The notes under the pieces are model-generated. The model made no database searches. It had not been told where the DNA came from and worked only from the letters and a program-made list of their open reading frames with translations. 64,000 nucleotides of DNA from Noviherbaspirillum sp. Root189. GTDB taxonomy: Bacteria; Pseudomonadota; Gammaproteobacteria; Burkholderiales; Burkholderiaceae_D. Shown here in pieces: positions 57,299-64,000 of this stretch. Position numbers and translations under genes: made by a program. The number at the start of each line of letters is the position of its first letter. The stretch's first letter is position 1. The stretch spans positions 90,751 through 154,750 of the forward strand of contig NZ_LMHZ01000089.1 of NCBI RefSeq assembly GCF_001428545.1, read 5' to 3'.

Positions 57299-58051
57299 AT
57301 GACGGATATTGTAAGAATCGATGATGAAGTCATCAGCGTCGACGACTTCGTCAGGACACTCAAGCTCAGCGGCCAGTTTGAAAGCCTGGTCGAACAGATG
57401 GTGCGCGACCGGCTCACGGTCAACGCCGCGAAGAAGCAGGGTATTCCGGTGCTGACCGAAGAAATCCAGGAACGGGCTGATCAGTTTCGCCGGGTGCAGG
57501 GTCTGCATCGCGCGGCCGACATGAATCAGTACCTGAGCGCACTCGGGGTCTCGCTGGACGAATTTGAAGAATTCATCACGGACGCGCTATATCAGGAAAA
57601 GATGCTGGCCAAGGTCTGTAATGATCGTGCCGTAGAAGAATATTTCAAACTTAACTCTCCCAAGTTCGACAGCATTGAAGTCAGTCACATCGTGCTCGAT
57701 GCCGAAGGCAAGGCGAAAGAAATGATTTCGGTATTGCAGGACGATCCGGACTGCTTCGCGGAAATGGCGATGGAACATTCCGTCGCCGATACACGCGACA
57801 AAGGTGGCCTCATTGGCAAGGTAATGCGCGGCTCGCTCAAGTCCGATATCGAAGCCAAAGTCTTTAACGCCAAGGTGGGCGACCTGCTTGGTCCTTTCCC
57901 GTCGCCTGATCGCACCGTGTTCGAAATTTTCATGGTCAACGCCAAGCATCCAGCGACACTGGACGAAGAGTCGACTGCGGAAATCCGACGCTTGCTGAAG
58001 GAAGAATGGCTTCTCGGCCGGGCGCAGGAACATATCATCGAAGCGTGCTAA
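57299..58051 (+). CDS. Cytoplasmic parvulin-like peptidyl-prolyl isomerase
   Basis: A 250-residue protein with a SurA/PpiC-like helical N-terminal part (about 1-115) and a parvulin-type domain (about 125-215: VSHIVLD, FAEMAMEHSVADTRDKGGLIG, GDLLGPF). There is no signal peptide, unlike SurA or PrsA, so it should work in the cytoplasm. It precedes the C39 exporter gene by 90 bp. The likely job is to hold the precursor peptides unfolded or to isomerise prolines before export; related PpiC-like proteins occur in other peptide-maturation loci. That role is inferred. Confidence 0.8.
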   Translation: MTDIVRIDDEVISVDDFVRTLKLSGQFESLVEQMVRDRLTVNAAKKQGIPVLTEEIQERADQFRRVQGLHRAADMNQYLSALGVSLDEFEEFITDALYQEKMLAKVCNDRAVEEYFKLNSPKFDSIEVSHIVLDAEGKAKEMISVLQDDPDCFAEMAMEHSVADTRDKGGLIGKVMRGSLKSDIEAKVFNAKVGDLLGPFPSPDRTVFEIFMVNAKHPATLDEESTAEIRRLLKEEWLLGRAQEHIIEAC

Positions 58052-58141
58052 ACCTGTCGTGAATCGTGCCAGGGGCCGAGCAAGCCCTCGCTGCCATCCC
58101 CCCGACAGCCGACAGCCTAGCGAAGCGAGAGTGGCAAGCCC

Positions 58142-61100
58142 ATGGACGCTCCATCACAGTCACAACTTCAGCCGGTCACGGACTTCCTTGCGTCGGTAGA
58201 AATTCTCTCTCCCTTTACCCGCGATGAACTGGAAGCCATCGCGCCGCACGTGGAATCGCGTTTCTTCGCATTCGGCGATACGGTGTGCAATGCCGGTGAT
58301 CCGGCTGATGGGCTGTATGTCATCAAGAGTGGCACCGTTCGTTTCTTTACCGAAGTGCAGGGTAAGGAAGTGAGTATGGGCGTACGCAAGACAGGGGAAG
58401 TCTTCGCCGACATTGCCATGCTGCGGGACTACCGGCACGAGGCGTCAGTGCGCGCTTCGGTCAAGACCGAGCTGCTTTTCATTCCGCGCCGTGTGATCGA
58501 ACCGATCATTCTGAAAAATCCAGCCGCGTATGCTTTCGTCACCAGCTATGTTGCGATCAGCTCCGCCGGAGGCTTCGTTGCGCGCCTTTTTGATTTGAAA
58601 GGGAAGGTCGACAAGAAAGAGCTGGAAGAATTCGTCCGTAGCGTTGGCGTCAAGCGCATTGCCGCAGGCAAGGAAATCCTCAAGCAAGACTCACGCGACG
58701 ATCGACGGCTATACGTTGTCCGTCACGGTGAAGTACGCATCGTCCGCAAGGAGGCTGGTGAGGAATATCCTCTGGCGACGTTGCGCGATGGCGAAATATT
58801 CGGCGAGAAAGCCTGCGTGCTGCGTCAGGAACAGATGGCATCGGTCACTGCCAACGAAGATACGACGTTGCTGGTCATTCCGGAAAAGACCGTGCATCAG
58901 CTCGTCGAGCGCAACCCGAAATTGCGTGAAGCGCTGGAAGAGCGCATCCAGTTCATCGAGCGGGAGTTGCACCGGCAAAAGAAACTTGCCGACCGCCGCA
59001 AGCGCCCCGTCACGCTGGACATGCGTTCGCAGCCGGAACTTGGCGAAAAAATCATCAAGCGTTTTCCGCTGGTGGAGCAGGCCGAAGAGATGGACTGCGG
59101 CGCGGCCTGCCTTGCGATGTTGTGCCGGCACCATGGCATTTCCATGACCCTCGGAAAGCTGCGTGAGCTTGCCAATGTCACTACCCAGGGCGCGACCATG
59201 GACAGCCTCGCAAGGGTCGGGGAATCGCTGGGATTTACCACGCGCGGCGTGCAATGCACCTATGAGGCACTGCTGGGTTTCGAGCTTCCCTTCATCGCAC
59301 ACTGGGAGGGGTACCACTATATTGTGATTTACGGCGTATCCAAACGGAACGTCTGGATAGCGGACCCGGCGCTCGGCTTCAGGAAGATGACGGTTGAAGA
59401 ATTCGAACGCGGCTGGAGCGGTACCTGTCTGTTATTCACGCCCGGGCAGGACCTGGCGCAGTTGACGACGACCCGTTCTCCGTGGATACGCTTTATCGCT
59501 TACCTGAAACCTTATAGGAAGATCCTGCTGCACCTGTTCCTCGCGACGTTCATCATCCAGATGCTGGGGCTGGTGCCGCCGCTCATCATCCAGAACATCC
59601 TCGACGGCGTCATCGTGCATCATAACGTCGGCCTGCTGCATTTACTGATCGCCGGACTGATTATCTCGAATGTATTTACGCAACTGATGACGACGATCCG
59701 GGCGTACCTGGCGAACTTCATGGTACGTAACATGGACTTTTCGATGATGTCGCATTTCTTCCGGCATACGATGTCGTTGCCGTACTCCTTCTTCGCCAAA
59801 CGCAAGACCGGCGACATCCTCGCCCGCTTCCAGGAGAACCAGACGATCCGGGGCTTTCTCACCGAATCGACGGTGACCACCATGCTGAACCTGCTGATGG
59901 TGTTCATCTATTTTTCGATCATGTTCCTGTACAACGCGAAGATGACGCTGGTCCTGATCGCCTTCGTGATTCCGATCATGGTGTTGACCGTCGTCGTCAC
60001 GCCGAGGATCAAAAATTATGCGCGGGAAGCATTTTCCACGTCGACCGAGGCGCAGGCCTACCTGATGGAAACGCTGGGCGGCGTGGAAACCATCAAGGGT
60101 ATGGGCATCGAAAGACCCGTGCGCCTGAAATGGGAAAAGAAGTACGCCAAGTCACTGGATGTGCAATACCGGATGCAGTCGTTCAGTATCCTTGTCTCGC
60201 TCGCCAGTCAGATACTGAACGCTGCCACCACAATCGCGATTCTGTGGGTTGGCGCAAACCTGGTGCTGAGCCGGGAGCTGAGCGTGGGACAGCTGATCGC
60301 CTTCAATGCCTTGATGGGAAGTGTGCTGGCACCGCTGATGGGCCTTGTCGGCCTTTGGGGTCGGTTGAACGATGCAGGCGTGGCGATGGAGCGTCTTGGG
60401 GACGTGCTCGACATGGAGCCTGAGCAAAAGCCGTCCGACCTGCCTTCACGCATCGTGCTGCCCGACCTGCAAGGTTCCGTACGATTCGACAACGTGTACT
60501 TTCGCTATGGCGGCAACGAAACGTCTTATGTGCTGGAAAATATCAGCTTCGACATTAATCCCGGTGAACTGGTCGCCGTTGTCGGGCGCAGCGGTTCGGG
60601 CAAAACCACGTTGGCCAAACTGCTGGTCGGCTTCTATCCGCCGAGTGAAGGAAAAATCATCGTCGACGGCTATGACATGGCGATGCTCGACAAGGATTAT
60701 TACCGTGCCCAGGTTGGCTATGTCATGCAAAGCAACCTGGTTTTTTCCGGGACGATTGCCGAAAATATTGCGAGCGGCGACGACAGTCCGGACAGGCGGC
60801 GTATCGAGGAAGTCGCAAAGATGGCGGATGCGCATGGTTTCATTGCCAAGATGCCGCTCGGCTACGAACAGGTCGTCGGCGAGCGTGGCGTCGGCCTGTC
60901 TGGCGGCCAGATCCAGCGCTTGTGCATTGCCAGGGCGCTGTATCACGATCCGCGCCTGCTGGTCTTCGATGAGGCAACGTCGGCGCTCGATACCCAGTCG
61001 GAAAGTAACATCATCACCAACATGCACGAAATCCTGAAAGGGCGTACCGCCGTCATCATCGCCCACAGGCTTAGCACCATCATGCGCGCCGACAAGATTC

Positions 61101-61207
61101 TCGTGCTGTATGAAGGAGCGATCGTCGAACAGGGCAAGCATGAAGAACTGGTCGACCGACGAGGCATGTATTTCCAACTTGTCCAGAAACAGTTGAGCGC
61201 CGCATGA
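58142..61207 (+). CDS. C39-peptidase ABC exporter with tandem cyclic-nucleotide-binding domains
   Basis: A 1021-residue fusion. Two cNMP-binding domains come first (about 15-125 and 160-275). A C39 bacteriocin-processing peptidase follows (about 305-440) with Cys319 (MDCGAACLAM), His392 (GYHYIVIYG) and Asp408 (WIADPALG). Then come six membrane helices (about 455-745) and an ABC ATPase with Walker A GRSGSGKTT (from about 815), signature LSGGQIQRLCIARAL and Walker B LLVFDEATSAL. All catalytic residues are present. It should cut leader peptides and export the product. The order recalls cyanobacterial HetC-type exporters. It overlaps the sigma-54 activator gene by 4 bp. Confidence 0.92.
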   Translation: MDAPSQSQLQPVTDFLASVEILSPFTRDELEAIAPHVESRFFAFGDTVCNAGDPADGLYVIKSGTVRFFTEVQGKEVSMGVRKTGEVFADIAMLRDYRHEASVRASVKTELLFIPRRVIEPIILKNPAAYAFVTSYVAISSAGGFVARLFDLKGKVDKKELEEFVRSVGVKRIAAGKEILKQDSRDDRRLYVVRHGEVRIVRKEAGEEYPLATLRDGEIFGEKACVLRQEQMASVTANEDTTLLVIPEKTVHQLVERNPKLREALEERIQFIERELHRQKKLADRRKRPVTLDMRSQPELGEKIIKRFPLVEQAEEMDCGAACLAMLCRHHGISMTLGKLRELANVTTQGATMDSLARVGESLGFTTRGVQCTYEALLGFELPFIAHWEGYHYIVIYGVSKRNVWIADPALGFRKMTVEEFERGWSGTCLLFTPGQDLAQLTTTRSPWIRFIAYLKPYRKILLHLFLATFIIQMLGLVPPLIIQNILDGVIVHHNVGLLHLLIAGLIISNVFTQLMTTIRAYLANFMVRNMDFSMMSHFFRHTMSLPYSFFAKRKTGDILARFQENQTIRGFLTESTVTTMLNLLMVFIYFSIMFLYNAKMTLVLIAFVIPIMVLTVVVTPRIKNYAREAFSTSTEAQAYLMETLGGVETIKGMGIERPVRLKWEKKYAKSLDVQYRMQSFSILVSLASQILNAATTIAILWVGANLVLSRELSVGQLIAFNALMGSVLAPLMGLVGLWGRLNDAGVAMERLGDVLDMEPEQKPSDLPSRIVLPDLQGSVRFDNVYFRYGGNETSYVLENISFDINPGELVAVVGRSGSGKTTLAKLLVGFYPPSEGKIIVDGYDMAMLDKDYYRAQVGYVMQSNLVFSGTIAENIASGDDSPDRRRIEEVAKMADAHGFIAKMPLGYEQVVGERGVGLSGGQIQRLCIARALYHDPRLLVFDEATSALDTQSESNIITNMHEILKGRTAVIIAHRLSTIMRADKILVLYEGAIVEQGKHEELVDRRGMYFQLVQKQLSAA

Positions 61208-62541
61208 AACTCTTCCAGCAAGGCGTGCCAGGCAGCACCACGATGTCGTATGCAGGGCTGATCGAAAAGATTGAGATCTTGCGTACGACACTGCGCTGGG
61301 CATCCAAACTCGAACGCCCCGACATCGAGAAACTGTTACGCCAGTCGAATGCCCTGCGCGAAGAAGTGATGCAACTGTCGCACAAGGAACGCTTTGTGAA
61401 GGCGGCAGCGCAGGAACCGGAGAAGCTCGATCAGCTGCCCGGACAGCGCAAGCAGGCACTGCTGGCACGAAGCTTTGTGTTTGAAGGGACTTTCGGCGAT
61501 AACCCGGATTTGCTCGATGCACTTGAAGTCGCCGAAAAAGCCGCGCCAACCGATTTGCCTGTGCTGATCGACGGCGAGAGCGGAACCGGCAAGGAATTGA
61601 TGGCCAAGGTTATCCATGCCAATGGTTCACGCGCCGACAAGCCATTCATCTCGGTCAATTGCGGTGCGATACCCGATAACCTGCTGGAATCCGAGTTATT
61701 TGGCCACAAGAAAGGCTCCTTTACCGGTGCCGCAAATGACAGGAAAGGCAAGTTTGAAAGCGCGCACAAAGGGACCATTTTCCTGGACGAGATTGGCGAG
61801 TTGCCGCTGGTGGGACAGGTCAAGCTGCTGCGGGTGCTAGAGTCGCACGAAATCCAACGCGTCGGTTCGGATGAGCTTATTTCGGTGGATGCGCGTATCG
61901 TTGCGGCGACCAACAAGAACTTGCGCAAGCTCAGCGAGCAGGGTGTGTTCAGGGAAGACTTGTTCTACCGGCTCAGCGTGATCCATGTCAGCCTGCCAGC
62001 CCTGCGTGACCGCAAGGATGAGATTCCCATACTGTTTTCCTATTTCTGTGATGAAGCGGCCGAGGCATTGAAGCGTCGTCCGGTAAAGATGTCGCCCGCA
62101 TTGCGCAGCTTCCTGCTCGACTATGCGTATCCGGGGAACATTCGCGAACTGCGCAACATCATTTATCGATTGTCATGCCTTGCCGGTGAAACCGCGGACA
62201 TCGTTCATCTTCCGGTTGACATCCGTCCCAAGCCGGGCGGTCAGGCGGCGCCCAATGCTTATGGTAGTGCGGCTGCCGGTCCATCCCCGGGCGGTACATT
62301 GGCCGGGATACCGAATACGGCTTCGCTGAGCGATGCCAGACGGATTGCCAGCGACGAGGCAGAGAAGGCATTTCTGGAAAAAGGACTGAGGGAAGTTGGC
62401 GGAACGGTCGCAGAACTGGCCCGTCGCTGCGACATGAACCGCTCGCACCTGCAAATGTTATTGAAGAAGCATGGCATTCATTCGAAGGATTTCCGCAAGC
62501 ATGCAGGGCACTCGGATGCAGGTGGAGACAAGCACGCTTGA
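61204..62541 (+). CDS. Sigma-54 enhancer-binding activator without receiver domain
   Basis: A 445-residue AAA+ activator. The N-terminal ~90 residues are helical and match no sensor domain that I recognise. The AAA+ domain has Walker A GESGTGKE (124-131), a GSFTGA loop at 171-176 in place of GAFTGA, and Walker B TIFLDE (191-196). A Fis-type helix-turn-helix at the C-terminus holds GGTVAELARRCDMNRSHLQ. It starts inside the exporter stop (ATGA), so the two are co-translated. Its obvious target is the sigma-54 promoter at 63798-63813. Confidence 0.92.
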   Translation: MKLFQQGVPGSTTMSYAGLIEKIEILRTTLRWASKLERPDIEKLLRQSNALREEVMQLSHKERFVKAAAQEPEKLDQLPGQRKQALLARSFVFEGTFGDNPDLLDALEVAEKAAPTDLPVLIDGESGTGKELMAKVIHANGSRADKPFISVNCGAIPDNLLESELFGHKKGSFTGAANDRKGKFESAHKGTIFLDEIGELPLVGQVKLLRVLESHEIQRVGSDELISVDARIVAATNKNLRKLSEQGVFREDLFYRLSVIHVSLPALRDRKDEIPILFSYFCDEAAEALKRRPVKMSPALRSFLLDYAYPGNIRELRNIIYRLSCLAGETADIVHLPVDIRPKPGGQAAPNAYGSAAAGPSPGGTLAGIPNTASLSDARRIASDEAEKAFLEKGLREVGGTVAELARRCDMNRSHLQMLLKKHGIHSKDFRKHAGHSDAGGDKHA

Positions 62542-62565
62542 TACGCTTCTAAAGTGTCAGTTGCT

Positions 62566-63336
62566 CTACAGCGCCGGATTCAATGCGGTCATTTCGTTCC
62601 GATGAAAATCATCAGCACGCACGACAACGGCAGAAATGTTGTCCCGTCCGCCCCGATACAGCGCCATGCCGATCAGTGTCTCGGATGCATGTTCGCAATC
62701 GCCTGGTGCAAGCGCATTGCACATTTCATCTTCACTCACGGCATTACTGAGTCCGTCGCTGCATAACAGGAACATGTCGCCGTCATCCACCTCGACACGA
62801 TCTTCGTCGATTTCCAGCGTGTCGGCGGCGCCCACCGCGCGAGTAATCATGTTTTTCGGTACGTGCAGCAGCGCATCCTCGGCGCTCATGCCGGCCTTGG
62901 CCTTGAGTTCTTCAAGCTGGCTGTGATCGCGTGTCAGCAAGCGAAGTTCGCCTTGCCGGAAACGATAAATGCGGCTATCGCCGGCCCATAGATAGCCGCA
63001 GTGGCTATCCCAGGCCAGTAGCACAACCGCAGTGCTGCCGATGATGTAGACGTCGCGAACAATCGCTTCTTGCCGGAGGTCGTGGTTTGCCAGCTGCAAC
63101 TGATTTCTTGCATGGCCGACAAACGCTTCCAGACTATCCGGAGGAGGAACCTCCTGCAGCCGGTCTACCACGGTGCGGCTCGCGTAGTCGCCCAGGGAAT
63201 GGCCGCCCATGCCGTCGGCCACTGCCCACATGCCGCGCTCCGGTCGGTCGAGAAGAGCGTCCTCATTGAGATCACGGATCAGGCCCACATGAGTGCGGGA
63301 CGAAGACGTCCATCGAAAATGTGTTGGATTAGTCAT
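62566..63336 (-). CDS. PP2C-family serine/threonine phosphatase
   Basis: A 256-residue PPM phosphatase with metal-binding motifs RDLNEDALL, VADGMGGH, GDSRIYRFR, CSDGLSN and GGRDNISAVVV. The start is ATG 63336 behind GGAGG; an earlier GTG frame would include that site. It converges with the activator gene (24-bp gap) and lies 103 bp downstream of the small exported protein gene on the same strand, so it may be transcribed from the sigma-54 promoter. No serine/threonine kinase is in the window; the partner is unknown. PP2C enzymes of this size also occur in type VI secretion loci, but no such genes are here. Confidence 0.9.
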   Translation of the reverse strand: MTNPTHFRWTSSSRTHVGLIRDLNEDALLDRPERGMWAVADGMGGHSLGDYASRTVVDRLQEVPPPDSLEAFVGHARNQLQLANHDLRQEAIVRDVYIIGSTAVVLLAWDSHCGYLWAGDSRIYRFRQGELRLLTRDHSQLEELKAKAGMSAEDALLHVPKNMITRAVGAADTLEIDEDRVEVDDGDMFLLCSDGLSNAVSEDEMCNALAPGDCEHASETLIGMALYRGGRDNISAVVVRADDFHRNEMTALNPAL

Positions 63337-63439
63337 CACAACCTCCACGAATCACGCATTGATTACGACACCCTGCGAGTCATGCTGAGCGTACGGGCCG
63401 GACAAGTATCGTACAACCAAAGTGACAGCGCCTGTGTGC

Positions 63440-63730
63440 TTAATGCTTCTGGTTTGTGCTGTGTTCATTAAGGATAACGTTGATATTCGAATTTGCCGCC
63501 GAATTATTGATGTCAACGTTCTGTATCTGGTTATTCATCTGGTCGGCGATATAGGTGTTGTTGATCTGGAAGAAGTTAAACACGGTTCCAAGACCTGAAT
63601 TGGGATTCGATGCCACGTACGGACGGATCCAGCCAAAGACCCATGGTGCACCCGAACCCCGGATCACCGACATGGCCTTGCGGTCGAGAGCACGGTTCAA
63701 GGGCAAATCTTTGATAGCGAGTACAGTCAT
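63440..63730 (-). CDS. Small exported Asn/Gln-rich protein with RG-type leader
   Basis: A 96-residue protein. Residues 1-26 form a leader: IKDLPLNRALDRKAMSVIRG then Ser, of the kind cut by C39 peptidases (helix, Leu and Met at spaced positions, small residues at 25-26). The mature part begins GAPWVFGW and ends in an Asn/Gln-rich core, NQIQNVDINNSAANSNINVI. The start is ATG 63730 with GGAG upstream. It sits behind a consensus sigma-54 promoter and next to a C39 exporter locus. I recognise no family; bacteriocin, signal or surface-fibre roles are possible. Confidence 0.75.
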   Translation of the reverse strand: MTVLAIKDLPLNRALDRKAMSVIRGSGAPWVFGWIRPYVASNPNSGLGTVFNFFQINNTYIADQMNNQIQNVDINNSAANSNINVILNEHSTNQKH

Positions 63731-63797
63731 GGTGAATCTCCGAAGTGTTGGGTGAAATGCGGCACAGTGTGCGTTAAGTGAGCTATATCTCCTATAG

Positions 63798-63813
63798 AGC
63801 AATCAGCGTGCCA
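63798..63813 (-). promoter_or_regulatory. Sigma-54 promoter of the small exported protein gene
   Basis: Read on the minus strand the sequence is TGGCACG-CTGA-TTGCT, an exact match to the consensus -24/-12 promoter (TGGCACG-N4-TTGCW). Transcription should start near 63786, about 56 bp before the ATG at 63730. I noticed no comparable match elsewhere in non-coding parts of the window. The activator encoded at 61204-62541 is the obvious partner. Confidence 0.9.
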
Positions 63814-63832
63814 TCACCCGATCATTGTCGGG

Positions 63833-64000
63833 CTAGAGTGCGGCGCTGATATTGCCCCATTGGGACGGGTTGACGGCGATATTAGGTGGAATGAAGCCGG
63901 CACCGATGACGCCGACATTGTTCAAGGTGTTGACGTCCACATTTTGTAACTGGTTCAGGTTCTGGGTGATCCCCACATTGACATTGGCAATCGGGCCCAG
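63833..64000 (-). CDS. Second Asn/Gln-rich small protein, C-terminal part (runs off the window)
   Basis: The last 55 residues of a gene whose start lies beyond the window end. It has the segment NQLQNVDVNTLNNVGVIGAG, matching the NQIQNVDIN core of the neighbouring small protein, and ends in NPSQWGNISAAL. Its stop TAG is at 63833-63835, 20 bp before the sigma-54 promoter of the next gene. The two are evidently paralogues; more may follow outside the window. Confidence 0.75.
   Translation of the reverse strand: MGPIANVNVGITQNLNQLQNVDVNTLNNVGVIGAGFIPPNIAVNPSQWGNISAAL

What the first reader, a model, noticed from the sequence alone, without database searches (positions are those of the whole stretch)
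57299..64000. A putative undescribed sigma-54-controlled peptide export system
Seen: parvulin-like protein, cNMP2-C39-ABC exporter, receiver-less sigma-54 activator (overlapping the exporter gene), PP2C phosphatase and two paralogous small Asn/Gln-rich proteins, one with a complete export leader, in 6.7 kb. Known: C39 exporters cut Gly-Gly-type leaders; sigma-54 activators need dedicated promoters. Inferred: the small proteins are the cargo, made under sigma-54 control, kept export-ready by the cytoplasmic isomerase, with phosphorylation as an additional switch. I know of no described system with this set. No HlyD adaptor or TolC is present, so the route across the outer membrane is open.
Basis: partly seen in the sequence, partly recalled or inferred. 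Interest (0 to 1): 0.93.

Follow-up and report, generated by a model that had tools for sequence, protein, structure and literature searches.

The report
Phospho-regulated sigma-54 peptide export system
The window holds most of a conserved gene set of Burkholderia-related bacteria (a peptide-cutting exporter, a sigma-54 activator, and small proteins with matching export tags behind a sigma-54-type promoter) that likely forms an undescribed, switchable peptide-secretion system, with adaptor, channel and kinase genes elsewhere in the genome.

Summary
In the 64 full-flank loci among the 80 closest relatives, parvulin, exporter and sigma-54 activator are always together; in 55 an outer-membrane efflux protein, tandem-FHA protein and HlyD adaptor precede them in order, and PP2C is near in 58. 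A Ser/Thr kinase lies 6-15 kb from the exporter in 20 of 22 genomes tested. The window's genome has these missing parts on another contig. The small proteins form an array of at least five with one leader. Of 294 family genomes, 29 have the exporter and 29 a class-A profile match, 28 shared. The window's peptide gene has an exact -24/-12 promoter. Relatives add an upstream dyad, TGTTGG-N7-CCAACA. Dyad plus promoter, searched in 15 genus genomes, gave 25 hits (0 control hits), 22 before double-glycine peptide genes; the window's own genome gave none. Export, cleavage and phosphorylation gating remain inferred. Eight open-access full-text searches listed no paper on this combination.

The parts
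57299..58051 (+). parvulin/SurA-like protein; no N-terminal signal sequence by eye; predicted cytoplasmic chaperone of the precursors
   Evidence: Rotamase PF00639 6e-10; SurA_N_3 just under its cut-off; TIGR04500 at 87.7 bits against a cut-off of 180; present in 64 of 64 full-flank loci; last active-site motif diverged
58142..61207 (+). exporter: two cNMP-binding-like domains, C39 peptidase, ABC transmembrane and ATPase domains (peptidase-containing ABC transporter)
   Evidence: C39 Gln, Cys and His and ABC motifs kept in 95 aligned sequences, some of them one genome reached twice
61204..62541 (+). sigma-54 activator (enhancer-binding protein) without a receiver domain, GSFTGA loop
   Evidence: Sigma54_activat 3e-69; GAFTGA in 89 and GSFTGA in 6 of 95 aligned sequences
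62566..63348 (-). PP2C-type Ser/Thr phosphatase, convergent with the activator
   Evidence: homologue in 58 of 64 full-flank loci, in 53 of them convergent next to the activator
63440..63730 (-). class A export peptide precursor (96 aa, 26-residue leader ending Gly-Ser, mature part 70 aa, N+Q 29%)
63798..63813 (-). exact sigma-54 -24/-12 promoter TGGCACG-N4-TTGCT, its first base 83 bp before the class A start codon
   Evidence: one exact match; shuffles mean 0.07, 7 of 100 have one; conserved before class A genes
63833..64000 (-). 3' part of a class C export peptide gene; its leader half lies beyond the window on the same contig

Best explanation
This locus encodes a C39-peptidase ABC exporter and an adjoining sigma-54 activator, and the exporter is predicted to cut the double-glycine-type leaders of a likely co-regulated family of small Asn/Gln-rich peptides and to send them out through an HlyD adaptor and an outer-membrane channel, probably gated by threonine phosphorylation. 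Proposed order of events: (1) the activator binds the dyad TGTTGG-N7-CCAACA, mostly 104-130 bp upstream of -24/-12 promoters, and switches on the peptide cassettes (DNA signals shown in relatives; binding inferred); (2) the parvulin/SurA-like protein holds the precursors (inferred); (3) the exporter's C39 domain recognises L(-12), M(-7), V/I(-4) and the Gly-Gly-type end and cleaves (motif and catalytic residues shown; reaction inferred); (4) HlyD and OEP partners carry the peptide across the outer membrane (genes shown; assembly inferred); (5) a Ser/Thr kinase, the PP2C phosphatase and FHA proteins license the machine, and the cNMP-like domains sense a small ligand (genes shown; function inferred).
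For: Synteny: of 64 full-flank loci (from the 80 best of 276 relatives), 64 have parvulin, exporter and activator; 55 have OEP, FHA, HlyD, parvulin, exporter and activator in that order on one strand; 58 have PP2C. Kinase in 22 of 22 genomes tested, 6.1-15.1 kb from the exporter in 20. Co-occurrence: of 294 family genomes 28 have both exporter and class-A profile match, 264 neither; order sample: the same 2 of 200, one of them the window's own genome. Leaders of 197 peptides: L-12 98%, M-7 98%, G-2 100%; D-19, not used in selection, 99%. Promoter with at most 2 mismatches upstream of 49 of 52 class A and 48 of 73 class B cassette-heading genes against 47 of 860 long open frames. Dyad at least 10 of 12 in 100 of 109 promoter upstreams against 163 of 6000 random 250-mers. 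Pattern search: 25 hits, 0 reversed-pattern controls; 22 precede double-glycine peptide genes, 1 lies 0.5 kb upstream of the parvulin gene. 15 of the 25 had no part in defining the motif; 12 of those precede peptides. Exact promoter in the window: 0.07 expected.
Against: No experiment shows export, cleavage or phosphorylation. Four of 15 genus genomes, the window's own among them, gave no dyad-plus-promoter hit; no dyad scoring 11 or more is in the window or L012. The array head of the own genome lies beyond the contig end. Two of the 25 hits (copies in one genome) precede nothing recognised. 25 of 73 class B heads lack a site with at most 2 mismatches. With 1 or 2 mismatches allowed, site counts in the window and L012 do not clearly exceed shuffles. 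The dyad was defined on the set in which it was first counted. Eight of 80 named loci show no class A or B peptide. In one of the 28 co-occurrence genomes (G014) the profile match is a class B peptide. Two of 22 kinases lie 99 kb and 2.6 Mb away. Fifteen of the 29 exporter genomes are one genus, and copied cassettes carry their promoters, so independent events are fewer than the counts. Kinase, PP2C and FHA are tied to the exporter by gene position alone.
Confidence: 0.75

Rival explanations
1. The peptides are antibacterial (class II microcin-like) and the locus is a bacteriocin cluster with an elaborate switch.
For: Double-glycine leader, C39 exporter and HlyD adaptor are the usual class II microcin export set (recalled); peptides come in multi-copy variable arrays.
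Against: No immunity gene was recognised among the neighbour families that I annotated; class A of seven loci from other genera keeps 47-53% identity to the window's instead of diversifying.
Confidence: 0.2
2. The peptides are cell-to-cell signals, as discussed for the HetC exporter.
For: HetC shares cNMP + C39 + ABC architecture and its cNMP domain binds ppGpp (PMC10986499, passages read); class A is single copy in 67 of the 69 named loci that have it.
Against: Ten precursor genes with different cores over 10 kb in L140 fit a bulk product better than one signal; no cognate receptor was recognised or specifically searched for.
Confidence: 0.2
3. The peptides are structural: exported N/Q-rich chains that assemble into an extracellular fibre or coat.
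For: N+Q 20-21% of class A and B mature parts with few charges; multi-copy arrays.
Against: No Pfam match for the window's peptides; AlphaFold2 models are unusable (pLDDT 47 and 51); four further precursors behind the same promoter have cores that are not of this type by eye.
Confidence: 0.35
4. The phosphatase, kinase and FHA genes are independent neighbours, and only exporter, activator and peptides form the system.
For: HlyD and FHA genes are about 20 kb or more from the exporter in the two Noviherbaspirillum genomes laid out, and the kinase is 99 kb and 2.6 Mb away in two of 22 genomes.
Against: The tandem-FHA gene sits between OEP and HlyD genes directly upstream of parvulin and exporter in 55 of 64 loci.
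Confidence: 0.25

Closest known systems
Peptidase-containing ABC transporters (PCAT1, ComA, microcin exporters)
   Same: C39 + ABC architecture; HlyB, PCAT1 and ComA are among the solved relatives; double-glycine-type leaders with hydrophobic -12, -7, -4
   Different: two N-terminal cNMP-like domains; sigma-54-type promoters on the cargo genes; FHA, PP2C and kinase genes nearby
HetC of Nostoc PCC 7120
   Same: N-terminal cNMP-type domain + C39 + ABC in one chain (PMC10986499, passages read)
   Different: the paper says that HetC's substrate is not identified and that no leader-peptide gene was found near hetC, while here the predicted cargo is adjacent; HetC is described with one cNMP domain
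Type I secretion (HlyB-HlyD-TolC)
   Same: ABC + HlyD + OEP set in 55 of 64 loci
   Different: C39 catalytic residues kept and N-terminal leaders, instead of the degenerate C39-like domain of HlyB (PMC8277102, one passage read)
Threonine phosphorylation pathway of type VI secretion (PpkA, PppA, Fha)
   Same: Ser/Thr kinase, PP2C and FHA genes beside a secretion machine (PMC3953482, abstract read; other papers seen in the listing)
   Different: here beside an ABC peptide exporter; type VI genes were not searched for
PpiC-like partner protein MirC of the graspetide rosaritide (TIGR04500)
   Same: weak TIGR04500 match of the parvulin; MirC is encoded with a PCAT and a peptide precursor, and the authors hypothesise a chaperone role (PMC13097080, passages and section 9 read)
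   Different: score below the family cut-off; no ATP-grasp or other maturase recognised among the annotated neighbours

Membership tests
Peptidase-containing ABC transporter (PCAT) | C39 domain with catalytic Gln, Cys, His, Asp | tested here: met
   PF03412 1e-40; Gln, Cys and His in 95 of 95 aligned sequences, Asp in the 86 whose motif is shown
Peptidase-containing ABC transporter (PCAT) | cognate double-glycine leader substrates nearby | tested here: met
   197 peptides, G-2 100%, G-1 93%, positions partly used in selection; 72 of 80 named loci
Peptidase-containing ABC transporter (PCAT) | cleavage and export of the substrate | not testable with these tools
   needs an experiment
Tripartite type I secretion | HlyD-type adaptor and outer-membrane factor with the ABC protein | tested here: met
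   directly upstream in 55 of 64 full-flank loci; in the window's genome on contig C18
NHLM/NHLP bacteriocin exporters (TIGR03796) | score above the curated cut-off | tested here: not met
   559.8 bits against 853.3
HetC-type exporters | N-terminal cNMP-type domain fused to C39-ABC | tested here: met
   two cNMP stretches by Pfam
HetC-type exporters | ppGpp binding | not testable with these tools
   needs a binding assay
Sigma-54 regulon with dedicated activator | -24/-12 promoters and upstream activator sites before target genes | tested here: met
   in relatives; in the own genome the promoter only
T6SS-type threonine phosphorylation pathway | kinase, PP2C and FHA protein encoded with the secretion machine | tested here: met
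T6SS-type threonine phosphorylation pathway | kinase phosphorylates a secretion component that FHA binds | not testable with these tools
   inferred from gene content only
Curli / Fap amyloid systems | recognisable curlin or Fap domains | tested here: not met
   no Pfam match for the window peptides; no precomputed Pfam domain on the 88 and 120 listed homologues
Class II microcins | immunity gene next to the peptide gene | tested here: inconclusive
   none recognised among annotated neighbour families; a novel immunity protein would be missed

The most novel reading that the evidence does not exclude
A distinct Gram-negative secretion machine: a C39-ABC exporter licensed by a type VI-like kinase/phosphatase/FHA switch and a nucleotide-sensing domain, fed by a sigma-54 regulon of peptide cassettes scattered round the chromosome, building a self-assembling extracellular peptide material in Burkholderiales and Rhodocyclales.
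Probability: 0.35. Interest if true: 0.92.

Novelty: new variant of a known kind. Interest (0 to 1): 0.8.

Why it matters
It would add a regulated peptide-secretion system to many soil and plant-associated bacteria whose peptides are today named only 'hypothetical protein'. It offers predicted cargo beside a cNMP-C39-ABC exporter, which is what is missing for HetC, and would link phosphothreonine signalling to an ABC exporter. The promoter-plus-dyad pattern is a ready way to list candidate peptides in related genomes, including cores unlike the founding ones.

Tried and rejected
A first sigma-54 pattern had the wrong spacer length and found one irrelevant site (2.28 expected); replaced by the 16-base consensus. 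With 2 mismatches L012 has 4 sites against 2.21 expected, with 1 mismatch the window has 1 against 1.23 expected; only the exact match stands out (0.07 expected). AlphaFold2 of class A (pLDDT 47) and class B (pLDDT 51) gave no usable model, so no fold search was run. The C39 protein Azo1746 of Azoarcus BH72 (PMC3262810, passages read) was considered and dropped: a weak domain match in that paper, not shown to be this exporter. Curli-like membership rejected for want of any domain match. HlyB-family and NHLM names rejected on curated cut-offs. Four large replicons of the plasmid collection carry the exporter, not followed. First class assignment by regular expression left 37 of 180 peptides unclassified; two profiles replaced it. 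In one search, 193 of 197 peptides were used; 4 were dropped for short or ambiguous upstream DNA. In one search, 98 of 109 promoter upstreams were non-redundant; one search counts all 109. The kinase search was given 22 of the 80 named loci. The ten outlying cassettes were picked by me from the matches.
Full report
Pfam and NCBIfam place a parvulin/SurA-like protein, a protein with two cNMP-binding stretches, a C39 peptidase and ABC domains, a sigma-54 activator and a PP2C phosphatase at the stated coordinates, and no family for the small proteins. The exporter misses the curated cut-offs of the HlyB family (624.6 against 725.55 bits) and of the NHLM exporters (559.8 against 853.3).

The contig runs 1,486 bases past the window and shows that the small genes are an array of at least five with the same leader, roughly MxxLxIKDLxxxxxLDxxAMxxVRGG. 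That stretch carries N bases and a repeated segment that looks like an assembly fault, and the contig ends inside the array. Window peptide A ends its leader in Gly-Ser.

Relatives. One scan of named genomes found 276 relatives of the exporter and kept the 80 best, from Noviherbaspirillum, Caballeronia, Paraburkholderia, Cupriavidus, Aromatoleum, Duganella and others, at 77-86% identity; what follows speaks of these closest ones. Of the 64 loci with full flanks (at least 22.5 kb), parvulin, exporter and activator are present in 64; in 55 OEP outer-membrane protein, tandem-FHA protein, HlyD adaptor, parvulin, exporter and activator follow one another in that order on one strand; PP2C is in 58, in 53 of them convergent right after the activator. 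By tblastn, caspase/FGE and DUF4399 homologues are in 53 each and an LRAT homologue in 46 (Pfam of examples). A Ser/Thr kinase homologue (Pkinase by Pfam in two genus genomes) was found in 22 of 22 named genomes given to the search, 6.1-15.1 kb from the exporter in 20, 99 kb in one and 2.6 Mb in one. HlyD and FHA homologues exist in 15 of 15 genus genomes. In the two genus genomes that I laid out they lie on the exporter's contig about 20-25 kb off, with the kinase between. In the window's own genome HlyD, tandem-FHA, OEP and an FHA-GAF-HD protein lie on contig C18 at 68.5-76.1 kb and the kinase at 79.7-81.7 kb of 82.5 kb. C18 may join C89 across the unassembled array; this is inferred from the order in the relatives.

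Peptides. Two profiles built on the loci found class A or B peptides in 72 of the 80 named loci and in the three others given. The eight without are L027, L030, L031, L036, L050, L077, L085 and L105; L027, L050 and L077 are short contigs. Over 294 family genomes the exporter is in 29, a class-A profile match (E up to 1e-5) in 29, both in 28. In one of the 28 (G014) the match is a class B peptide. The exporter-only genome (G009) has other double-glycine peptides behind the same promoter pattern; the peptide-only genome (G299) is 86% complete and its match is partial. In an order-wide sample both are in the same 2 of 200, one of them the window's genome. Fifteen of the 29 genomes are one genus, so the events are fewer than the counts. 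Leaders of 197 peptides: L-12 98%, M-7 98%, V or I at -4 98%, G-2 100%, G-1 93%. These positions, and loosely -18, were used to select the set; D-19 (99%) was not. Mature class A and B parts have 20-21% N+Q. Of the 88 class A and the 120 listed class B homologues (239 found), those with a readable name are called hypothetical or uncharacterised protein, apart from one automatic label.

Regulation. The window's class A gene has an exact TGGCACG-N4-TTGCW match whose first base is 83 bp before the start codon; it is the window's only one, and 7 of 100 shuffles have one. Over relatives, sites with at most 2 mismatches lie within 300 bp of 49 of 52 class A and 48 of 73 class B genes that head a cassette, against 47 of 860 long open frames of the same loci and 730 of 20,000 random 300-mers; of genes inside a cassette 3 of 10 (A) and 3 of 58 (B) have one. 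A dyad TGTTGG-N7-CCAACA turned up by word counting in 98 non-redundant upstream regions. It scores at least 10 of 12 in 100 of 109, against 163 of 6000 random 250-mers; 80 of the 100 start 104-130 bp before the -24 box. As it was defined on this set, dyad, spacer and promoter were then used as one DNA pattern on 15 genus genomes: 25 hits in 11 genomes and none for the reversed pattern. By script (18) and by eye (4), 22 hits precede a double-glycine peptide gene; one (G011) lies 0.5 kb upstream of the parvulin gene; two, copies in one genome, precede nothing recognised. Ten of the 25 lie in sequence that helped define the motif; of the other 15, 12 precede peptides. Four peptides (L184, L185, L194, L195) have cores unlike classes A-C by eye, so leader and promoter rather than core define the set. 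The window's own genome and three others (G004, G005, G007) gave no hit. Ten cassettes from six genomes lie on other contigs or at least 380 kb from the exporter; seven have a site with at most 3 mismatches 83-89 bp before the first gene, and an eighth (G003, 1779493) appears. In the named loci, 78 of 107 joint dyad-promoter sites have a recorded peptide start within 200 bp; of the other 29, eight lie next to an open frame of the LRAT-domain family (Pfam of one member).

Mechanism. The C39 Gln, Cys and His, the ABC motifs and the activator's GAFTGA-type loop are kept across 95 aligned sequences, some of which are one genome reached twice; the C39 Asp is in the 86 shown. The second cNMP-like domain lacks the usual arginine context of cAMP binders (sequence reading against recalled consensus), which recalls HetC, whose domain binds ppGpp (PMC10986499, passages read). 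The parvulin's last motif is diverged (against recalled consensus), and its weak relative MirC is hypothesised by its authors to be a chaperone in a pathway with a PCAT (PMC13097080, passages and section 9 read), so I favour a chaperone role. FHA, PP2C and kinase genes recall the type VI threonine phosphorylation pathway (PMC3953482, abstract read); here the link is gene position only.

Novelty. Full-text searches of the open-access library (one search listed 10 of 23) showed no paper on this combination, judged from titles, abstract starts and the passages read. Subscription papers and preprints are mostly not covered. The parts are known kinds; the combination and its regulon appear undescribed.

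Noticed in passing
L059 1-1554, L067 1-1376 (minus strand); homologue L143 3796-5976: A protein joining a caspase domain to an FGE-sulfatase domain (Pfam) lies near the peptide cassette or kinase; homologues in 53 of 64 full-flank loci. Role unknown.
   Followed up: partly
L098 15567-16451 and homologues: An LRAT-domain gene (Pfam) beyond the class A peptide; eight joint dyad plus sigma-54 sites lie next to open frames of this family, so it may belong to the regulon.
   Followed up: partly
L138 16259-16741; L098 1521-2147 and 2155-2637: DUF4399 proteins (Pfam) accompany the system; homologues in 53 of 64 full-flank loci.
   Followed up: no
L012 7200-8000 (beyond window end): Draft assembly shows N bases and a repeated stretch of the peptide array; the contig ends 12 bases before the first peptide gene seen.
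   Followed up: partly
L034, L035, L038, L086, L140 2587-2787, L142 2685-2885: A short basic peptide class (leader then GGAR) shares the leader but not the N-rich core.
   Followed up: no
L138 14154-16091; L034 1300-3552: An FHA-GAF-HD protein sits beside the adaptor genes in this genome and in Aromatoleum (Pfam), a possible cyclic-dinucleotide link.
   Followed up: no
L140 5088-5716 and 10506-11134: Two stretches with identical or near-identical peptide genes suggest recent duplication of the cassette.
   Followed up: no
L078 4709, L079 4778, L088 4731, L091 4763, L096 4756: In Cupriavidus loci a perfect dyad TGTTGGCGGTCCACCAACA sits roughly 0.3 kb before the tandem-FHA gene; whether a sigma-54 promoter belongs to it was not settled.
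   Followed up: partly
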